Shown one piece after another: positions 11,313 through 12,262 of a DNA stretch of 64,000 nt. The translations under genes were made by a program, and so were the position numbers. The stretch's first letter is position 1. Each line of letters opens with the position of its first letter. The stretch covers positions 1 through 64,000 of IMG/VR virus record IMGVR_UViG_3300042350_002797; one strand, written 5' to 3'. A model generated the notes under the pieces. That model searched no databases. It saw only the letters and a list, made by a program, of their open reading frames with translations, and was not told the origin of the DNA. This stretch comes from a virus.

Positions 11313-11687
11313 GCGAAATTAAGAGAAAACATACAAGAACAATTACCCTTTATTTCTGTGCTTCATTATGGAGAAAGCGAATACGTTGGGATTATAATAA
11401 ATCAAGATCAATACGTAACTAGTTTTTTTGATTTGAGCATGTTAAAAACTGCTGAAGATAAAGCTGGATTATTAGAGATCGGAGAAATTTGGTGGTGGGA
11501 ATCTAACAGACAGGTTCCTATAAACATATTTCTTAGAAAGGAAATAGAACCTTATCGATACGCTATTAAAACCTTTAATAGCAAAGATGTCAGAATAATG
11601 CTCGGGCCAGTAGTGAATTTATTAAATTTAACTATAAAACGAGTTAAAAGAAAAAGTGTTCAGTTAGTAAGAGCCCCAAAACGTTAA
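11310..11687 (+). CDS. Hypothetical phage protein (125 aa)
   Basis: 125 aa, one of the few plus-strand genes. Begins MAKLRENIQEQLPFISVLHY, with an aromatic patch (EIWWWESNRQVP) and a basic C-terminus (KRVKRKSVQLVRAPKR) that could bind nucleic acid. Late box TATAAATA at 11271. The stop overlaps by 4 nt the stop of the convergent mini-DnaE gene. It resembles an unannotated protein of T4-like marine phages; function unknown. Confidence 0.7.
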   Translation: MAKLRENIQEQLPFISVLHYGESEYVGIIINQDQYVTSFFDLSMLKTAEDKAGLLEIGEIWWWESNRQVPINIFLRKEIEPYRYAIKTFNSKDVRIMLGPVVNLLNLTIKRVKRKSVQLVRAPKR

Positions 11688-12262
11688 CTAAATTCATAAC
11701 TTACTTTTTCACATATTAAGTTCATTTGTACTACAATTGCCTGAGCATAAGCTATGGCATGCGCCTTTTTAAAATAATATTCATCATTTTCTGGTTTTTT
11801 CCAAACCTCTTCTAAGATCGTCGACCATGGCTCTCCAACTAGGTATCTCTTCGCTGGTCGTATCACTGCTAATACTGCTGCTAATTGTTCTATCGTTATT
11901 GGTTTCATTTGACGTAATATAGAACCATGCCCGTTTACGTGAAAGAGTAAGTCGATGAACTCGTCTTGTTCTAGAAGATCCCATAATGGTTCCGTCTCCA
12001 TCAATTTTTTTAAATGTTCTTCGTTTTTTACATCTTTGTAAACACTAACATTTAGCAAGTCTATTTTAAAATATCCTCGTTCTTCCGCAGTTTTATAATC
12101 AATGTTTGATAGATTTGTTATAGGATTAGAGGGTATAGGTTGCACATAGATACCGGTATTATGTGGTACTAACAAATCATTTTGTAATCGACTAGCTCTA
12201 ATATGTTTAATATGTTTAAGAGCTAATTCACGATCTGCAAAGTCTATATCGATATCAGGCAT
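11684..12262 (-). CDS. Miniature DNA polymerase III alpha (DnaE)-like protein (192 aa)
   Basis: Begins MPDIDIDF, the PDxDxDF block that carries two catalytic aspartates of C-family polymerases (here D3 and D5; D7 follows). A third match is GYFKIDLLN with D68, aligning with the KFDFLGL aspartate of E. coli DnaE. Other DnaE-like blocks follow in order: [20 protein letters not shown] with VIRPA, then [10 protein letters not shown] near the C-terminus. The PHP, most finger and all tau- and clamp-binding domains are missing (192 aa against about 1,100-1,200). ATG overlaps the previous stop (TAATG). Activity is uncertain; it may be a degenerate palm used as a binding module. Confidence 0.7.
   Translation of the reverse strand: [192 protein letters not shown]

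What the first reader, a model, noticed from the sequence alone, without database searches (positions are those of the whole stretch)
11684..12262. Miniature DnaE-like protein with all three catalytic aspartates
The 192-aa protein begins at PDIDIDF, keeps FKIDLLN for the third Asp, and carries DnaE-like blocks to [10 protein letters not shown]. Pol III alpha is about six times larger. It may be a minimal polymerase or a degenerate piece used to bind DNA or a host clamp loader. Similar short phage annotations may exist, but a role is not known to me.
Basis: partly seen in the sequence, partly recalled or inferred. Interest (0 to 1): 0.75.

Follow-up and report, generated by a model that had tools for sequence, protein, structure and literature searches.

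The report
C-half of a split phage polymerase
This small gene encodes one half of a stripped-down bacterial-type DNA polymerase that this giant bacterial virus keeps in two separate genes 180,000 bases apart; such split mini-polymerases were predicted from other giant phages in 2021, but as far as I could find nobody has shown what they do.

Summary
ORF 12262..11684 (minus strand, 192 aa) carries D3-D5-D7 and K66-D68 of bacterial Pol III alpha (DnaE), and its AlphaFold model matches only DnaE chains among confident PDB hits. It is neither a stand-alone mini-polymerase nor a decayed relic. It starts exactly at MPDIDIDF and lacks the Gly-Ser nucleotide-binding segment that precedes this motif in DnaE. 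That segment (GVGRGSS...QEFLR) ends a second gene, 161 aa, 180 kb away in the same 364.5-kb phage genome. The two meet with only about six DnaE residues missing. All 18 matched pairs examined break at this place. The Asp/Lys residues are invariant in 101 non-redundant relatives, and Gly-Arg-Gly-Ser in 65 N-halves. All 11 isolate phages tested with the C-half also hold the N-half and a family-B polymerase. Iyer et al. 2021 already described this 'split minimal Pol III alpha'. New here: the exact junction, the invariance, and that in some phages both halves lie in one replisome operon (N, GroES-like, clamp loader, gp62-like, Zn-finger, C), of which the window holds the C-terminal part beside primase and helicase. 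Most likely the halves rebuild a thumb-less Pol III active site serving the primase/clamp-loader complex. Activity is untested.

The parts
11684..12262 (-). C-half of split minimal Pol III alpha (192 aa): Mg-binding palm strands plus reduced fingers
12239..12259 (-). PDIDIDF (residues 2-8): catalytic D3 and D5 (E. coli D401/D403), D7
   Evidence: invariant Asps in 101 non-redundant relatives
12050..12070 (-). FKIDLLN (residues 65-71): K66 and third catalytic Asp D68
   Evidence: K66 and D68 invariant; aligned to KMDFLG of DnaE
11849..11863 (-). IRPAK (residues 134-138), fingers block equal to YRPG of DnaE
   Evidence: I134, R135, P136 invariant; aligned
11741..11770 (-). [10 protein letters not shown] (residues 165-174), equal to NKSHAAGYG of DnaE
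   Evidence: H168 and Y172 invariant; aligned
12262..12447 (-). 61-aa ORF translationally coupled (TAATG) to the C-half; no GS motif; relatives in 49 of 80 loci
12444..13136 (-). 230-aa protein with N-terminal CxxC...H zinc-finger-like motif, phrog_11058, unknown function; found beside the C-half in 80 of 80 loci
13133..13612 (-). phrog_11758 family; putative clamp-loader small subunit (T4 gp62-like)
   Evidence: its family relatives match phrog_225, the family of T4 gp62, at E down to 2.5e-9; lies next to RFC in L199/L210/L211/L179
11310..11687 (+). 125-aa gene on the opposite strand, tail-to-tail 4-bp overlap with the C-half gene (phrog_11637, unknown); in 78 of 80 loci
10484..11332 (-). 282-aa protein, weak match to a virion structural family (phrog_14467)
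9506..10474 (-). DnaG-type primase (Toprim), downstream of the C-half
   Evidence: 64 of 80 loci
6994..8409 (-). DnaB/gp41-like replicative helicase
   Evidence: 52 of 80 loci, many others truncated

Best explanation
The ORF is the C-terminal half of a two-gene, stripped-down Pol III alpha (DnaE) catalytic core. The N-half (161 aa, record position 191877-192362, outside the window) supplies the first palm helix and the Gly-Ser (GVGRGSS) segment that holds the incoming nucleotide's phosphates. The C-half supplies the DxDxD strand, the KxD strand and a shortened fingers region. Together they should rebuild one Pol-beta-type active site lacking PHP, thumb, clamp-binding, OB and tau-binding parts. 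Shown here: both sequences, their exact complementarity to DnaE, invariance of active-site residues, co-occurrence, shared replisome gene neighbourhoods and palm-like predicted folds. Inferred: that the two proteins bind each other and are catalytically active. Further inferred, at lower confidence (about 0.35): that the enzyme acts beside the primase/clamp loader as a short-range polymerase (primer extension or gap filling) which hands over to the phage's family-B polymerase.
For: N-half found in the same record by PF07733, E=1e-11, aligned to E. coli alpha 320-392 ending at 'ERFL'. The C-half begins at the DnaE block [11 protein letters not shown]. In a complete DnaE the two blocks are joined as [19 protein letters not shown]. 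All 18 same-genome pairs break here, and N and C distances correlate (Mantel r=0.82, 0 of 2000 permutations). Invariance: D3/D5/D7/K66/D68/R135/H168/Y172 in 101, G127/G129/R130/G131/S132 in 65. AlphaFold pLDDT 89.6 (C) and 87.2 (N); the top 14 Foldseek PDB hits of C and the top 15 of N are all DnaE or PolC. Co-occurrence in 11 of 11 isolate phages and all six records above 200 kb. Neighbourhoods: the C-half with gp62-like, Zn-finger, primase and helicase; the N-half with GroES-like and RFC clamp loader. One operon holds both halves in L199/L210/L211.
Against: No complex could be modelled or assayed. Mantel correlation and synteny also follow from plain shared inheritance. Foldseek E-values are only 3e-3 to 1e-2 with TM (query) below 0.5, although DnaE is the only family with high probability. 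Without a thumb, DNA grip would be weak, so the activity may be limited or different. All tested phages already have a family-B polymerase, and the one in this genome keeps DINSLYP and YGDTDS, so a second polymerase is not obviously needed.
Confidence: 0.75

Rival explanations
1. The pair reforms a Pol-beta-type nucleotidyltransferase with another substrate (for example single-nucleotide addition to primers, DNA ends or RNA, or repair synthesis), not a replicative helper polymerase.
For: No thumb, PHP, HhH, OB or clamp-binding parts remain; the catalytic triad and GS motif are invariant.
Against: The reduced fingers blocks of DnaE are retained and invariant (R135, H168, Y172), and the genes sit in replisome operons.
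Confidence: 0.2
2. Non-catalytic pair: a DnaE-derived scaffold or decoy that binds primer-template, clamp loader or host Pol III parts.
For: Very small size; an active family-B polymerase is present.
Against: Invariance of Asp, Lys and GS residues over relatives down to about 34% identity is not expected for a scaffold; the phage has its own clamp-loader genes.
Confidence: 0.07
3. Degenerate fragment of a captured bacterial dnaE, on its way to loss.
For: Only 192 aa against about 1160; low identity to DnaE.
Against: Intact in every relative seen (142 C, 101 N before redundancy removal), invariant catalytic residues, conserved gene order, no close bacterial source in 84,980 genomes.
Confidence: 0.02
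4. Split-intein arrangement like cyanobacterial DnaE-n/DnaE-c, or trans-splicing into one chain.
For: These phages do carry split inteins elsewhere (PolB of MIJ3, PMC6892783).
Against: The N-half ends at QEFLR-stop and the C-half starts at MPDIDIDF, leaving no room for intein halves; the break is at another place than the cyanobacterial one.
Confidence: 0.01

Closest known systems
Split minimal Pol III alpha of group 2.2 jumbo phages (Iyer et al. 2021, PMC7824862)
   Same: Two small genes: N-terminal NTP-binding piece and C-terminal Mg/template-binding piece, with a family-B polymerase
   Different: New phage record. Added here: exact junction, invariance counts, co-occurrence counts, and phages where both halves share one operon (Iyer: 'distantly located genes')
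phrog_11778 (C-half) and phrog_11127 (N-half), both named 'DNA polymerase'
   Same: Both proteins are full-length members (E=6e-68 and 4e-36)
   Different: PHROGs does not record that the two are complementary halves
Bacterial Pol III alpha (DnaE), e.g. E. coli 2hnh, M. tuberculosis 5lew
   Same: Catalytic D401/D403/D555-type residues, GRGS motif, RPG and KSHA fingers blocks
   Different: Split in two; no PHP, thumb, HhH, OB, clamp- or tau-binding parts; 161+192 aa against about 1160
CBB_328 / Atu_ph07 gp316 'truncated DNA polymerase III alpha' (PMC5259590, PMC6102473)
   Same: Same system in cultured phages
   Different: Those notes describe only the N-half; the C-half next to primase was left unmentioned

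Membership tests
Split minimal Pol III alpha of jumbo phages (Iyer et al. 2021) | C-terminal piece with DxD and KxD Asps plus template-binding part as a standalone protein | tested here: met
Split minimal Pol III alpha of jumbo phages (Iyer et al. 2021) | Separate N-terminal NTP-binding piece in the same genome | tested here: met
   G000:191877-192362, PF07733 E=1e-11, GVGRGSS
Split minimal Pol III alpha of jumbo phages (Iyer et al. 2021) | Family-B DNA polymerase present in the same phage | tested here: met
   887 aa at G000:166337-169000 with DINSLYP and YGDTDS; 15 of 15 other records
Split minimal Pol III alpha of jumbo phages (Iyer et al. 2021) | No other Pol III alpha domains in the genome | tested here: met
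   no PHP or HHH_6, no fingers match other than this ORF
Bacterial Pol III alpha (DnaE) | Catalytic Asp triad with KxD | tested here: met
Bacterial Pol III alpha (DnaE) | GRGS nucleotide-binding segment in the same chain | tested here: not met
   absent from this ORF and from the 61-aa ORF upstream; present in the separate N-half
Bacterial Pol III alpha (DnaE) | PHP, thumb, full fingers, HhH/OB, clamp-binding tail | tested here: not met
   165 residues between the Asp motifs in DnaE against 65 here; PHP and HHH_6 absent
Pol-beta-type nucleotidyltransferase superfamily | GS motif plus DxD plus third Asp in one assembled palm | tested here: inconclusive
   all motifs present but on two chains; both predicted folds match DnaE; assembly not modelled
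Functional DNA polymerase | Template-directed nucleotide incorporation | not testable with these tools
   needs biochemistry
Split-intein DnaE (cyanobacterial type) | Intein halves at the break | tested here: not met

The most novel reading that the evidence does not exclude
A dedicated heterodimeric helper polymerase: the reunited Pol III palm, built into a replisome complex with phage primase, helicase and clamp loader, extends primers and hands over to the family-B polymerase, so that a bacterial-type and an archaeo-eukaryotic-type polymerase work at one fork. The split site and the ancestral single operon would make it the smallest DnaE-type enzyme known.
Probability: 0.35. Interest if true: 0.8.

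Novelty: new member of a known kind. Interest (0 to 1): 0.45.

Why it matters
If active, this is a DnaE-type polymerase cut down to its catalytic core and divided between two genes, used by widespread giant phages beside a family-B polymerase. It would define the minimal Pol III catalytic unit and bears on how the DnaE/PolC lineage arose. The sequence family is published as a prediction; the precise junction and the one-operon phages found here make the prediction directly testable by co-expressing two small proteins.

Tried and rejected
Wrong start codon: rejected, an in-frame stop lies 5 codons upstream. The 61-aa ORF as the missing GS piece: rejected, no GS motif. Intein or trans-splicing: rejected, no room. 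Fusion of the halves into one chain: none in 254 loci; nearest are one-operon cases. N and C adjacent in the window's close relatives: none within 6 kb in 80+80 loci. DnaQ-like epsilon partner in this record: none by PF00929, although CBB and XacN1 carry one near the C-half. Bacterial relatives of the short form: none; the only confirmed hit is a full-length DnaE. hhalign of the 159-aa family against the single T4 gp62 sequence: not significant, so the gp62 assignment rests on PHROG 225 matches. Pfam on the single sequence: below cut-off. L201-L207 looked like short relatives but are larger DnaE genes broken at other places.

Full report
Observation. The ORF at 12262..11684 on the minus strand is 192 codons with an ATG start and an in-frame stop five codons upstream. 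Its start overlaps the stop of a 61-aa ORF (TAATG). PHROGs names the family 'DNA polymerase' (phrog_11778, E=6e-68), and the full-length phage DnaE family phrog_405 also hits (E=4e-8). A 57-sequence profile aligns colinear blocks to M. tuberculosis DnaE1: residues 1-13 to 413-425, 53-137 to 566-663, and 160-175 to 773-788 (a further block, at 482-527, is a weak, off-register match). So the region between the first two Asps and the third is shortened from about 165 to 65 residues, and the fingers between RPG and KSHA from about 118 to about 31.

What is missing, and where it is. DnaE needs a GRGS-containing segment just before the PDxDxDF motif. This ORF starts exactly at MPDIDIDF and has none. 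Searching the whole 364,554-bp virus record with PF07733 gave one match, E=1e-11, at 191880-192110 on the same strand. It lies in a 161-aa ORF (191877-192362) ending ...IVWGVGRGSSVASYVLFLLDVHKIDSIKYKLNWQEFLR-stop. That piece aligns to E. coli alpha 320-392, ending at 'ERFL'. In an intact DnaE the sequence reads ...[48 protein letters not shown] (Rhodococcus ORF in L178). The two phage genes therefore abut on DnaE with about six residues missing. In 18 pairs taken from the same genomes (11 isolate phages, G000, three IMG/VR records, three one-operon loci) the break is always here, and the pairwise distances of the two halves correlate (Mantel r=0.82; 0 of 2000 permutations), as expected for a pair inherited together. 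That correlation does not by itself prove contact.

Conservation. In 101 C-halves (95% non-redundant) D3, D5, D7, H34, K66, D68, P121, I134, R135, P136, H168 and Y172 are invariant. In 65 N-halves E96, G127, G129, R130, G131 and S132 are invariant. This holds down to Alishewanella phage Slicko01 (141 kb) and Xanthomonas phage XacN1.

Fold. AlphaFold with the family alignments gave pLDDT 89.6 (C) and 87.2 (N). Foldseek against the PDB: for C, ranks 1-14 are all Pol III alpha, including the Taq ternary complex 3e0d and 4iqj, with probabilities up to 1.0, and the next hits have probability 0.02-0.06. For N, ranks 1-15 are DnaE or PolC. E-values are modest (3e-3 to 1e-2) because the pieces are small.

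Distribution and co-occurrence. Relatives of the C-half occur in more than 550 IMG/VR stretches and about 90 phage records (Asteriusvirus, RaK2-like, PA5oct/Paride, Atu_ph07, Phosso, SCTP-2, XacN1). The N-half is in 86 records at E<1e-11 with nearly the same host list. All 11 isolate genomes tested with a C-half contain an N-half. All six records longer than 200 kb (G000, G001, G002, G003, G014, G015) contain both, about 147-186 kb apart on the same strand. Shorter contigs often hold only one, as expected at such distances. All 15 records tested have a family-B polymerase; the one here is 887 aa with exonuclease domain, DINSLYP and YGDTDS. PHP, HHH_6 and any other fingers domain are absent from this record. 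Among 84,980 bacterial and archaeal species genomes, the only confirmed hit was a full-length DnaE.

Neighbourhood. In 80 related loci the C-half is accompanied by the 230-aa zinc-finger-like protein (80 of 80), the opposite-strand 125-aa gene (78), the 159-aa gene (76), the 282-aa gene (71), primase (64) and helicase (52); the lower counts include loci cut short by contig ends. The N-half is accompanied by a small protein and a GroES-like protein (78 of 80 each) and the RFC clamp loader (63 of 80). The same two neighbourhoods are seen in Atu_ph07, CBB and Paride, and the C-side one in 121Q, RaK2, SCTP-2 and Vibrio phage 2.275.O. The 159-aa family (window 13133-13612, phrog_11758) is probably the gp62-like clamp-loader small subunit: its relatives match phrog_225, the family of T4 gp62, at E down to 2.5e-9, and they directly follow RFC in L199, L211 and Slicko01, with one small gene between in L210.

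One operon. In L199, L210 and L211 both halves are on one strand within 5 kb: N, small protein, GroES-like, membrane protein, RFC, gp62-like, zinc-finger protein, C. XacN1, CM1 and Slicko01 have them 11-15 kb apart, N upstream. So the two clusters of the present phage, 180 kb apart, look like separated parts of one replisome operon. Iyer et al. describe the halves only as distantly located; I did not find the one-operon arrangement in the literature searched.

Mechanism. Shown: sequences, complementarity, invariance, co-occurrence, neighbourhoods, predicted folds. Following from the known chemistry of the Pol-beta-type nucleotidyltransferase fold: GS holds the triphosphate, and the three Asps hold two Mg ions. 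Inferred: that the halves associate into one active site. Less certain: the task. Without thumb and clamp-binding parts, long processive synthesis is unlikely. Placement beside primase, helicase and clamp loader suggests short synthesis such as primer extension before the family-B polymerase, as DnaE does for PolC in Bacillus (from my own knowledge, not tested). Iyer et al. suggested cooperation with the family-B enzyme in synthesis of one strand or in repair.

Prior art and novelty. Iyer et al. 2021 (PMC7824862) described the split minimal Pol III alpha of group 2.2 jumbo phages and proposed that the pieces reconstitute an enzyme. Weinheimer and Aylward 2022 (PMC9123017) report PF07733, the Pfam domain matched by the N-half, as the gene marking their largest marine jumbo-phage cluster. 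CBB and Atu_ph07 papers note a short alpha subunit (PMC5259590, PMC6102473), which is the N-half. I found no experimental study. I therefore file this as a new member of a known kind, with moderate interest: the biology is open and testable, but the kind was already recognised.

Noticed in passing
window 13133-13612 (-): 159-aa protein of phrog_11758 ('unknown') is probably the missing clamp-loader small subunit (T4 gp62-like); the CBB paper stated that gp62 was absent.
   Followed up: partly
L199 5543-10576, L210 5201-10579, L211 5628-10570: N- and C-halves of the split polymerase lie in one operon with GroES-like protein, clamp loader and gp62-like protein between them.
   Followed up: yes
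window 11310-11687 (+): 125-aa gene on the opposite strand overlaps the end of the C-half gene by 4 bp; this tail-to-tail arrangement is kept in 78 of 80 loci and in several distant phages (phrog_11637, unknown function).
   Followed up: partly
window 8406-9383 (-): Carbamoyltransferase N-domain gene sits between primase and helicase; found there in 48 of 80 loci.
   Followed up: no
L201-L207 (e.g. L201 7471-9084 and 9920-11461): Other phage contigs carry larger DnaE genes broken into two ORFs at a different place, between palm and fingers, with about 0.8-3.4 kb between; introns, inteins or insertions were not examined.
   Followed up: no
W01 (Slicko01), W09 (Atu_ph07), W11 (Paride) records: The family-B polymerase itself is in two or more open frames in these phages; for the close relative MIJ3 a split intein has been published (PMC6892783).
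   Followed up: no
L211 6809-7798 and equivalents in L199 and L210: Large membrane protein of unknown function inside the replisome operon, between GroES-like protein and clamp loader.
   Followed up: no
phrog_7513 (461 aa, unknown function): Its C-terminal part matches the N-half (E=8e-6), so this 'unknown' family may be another N-terminal DnaE piece.
   Followed up: no
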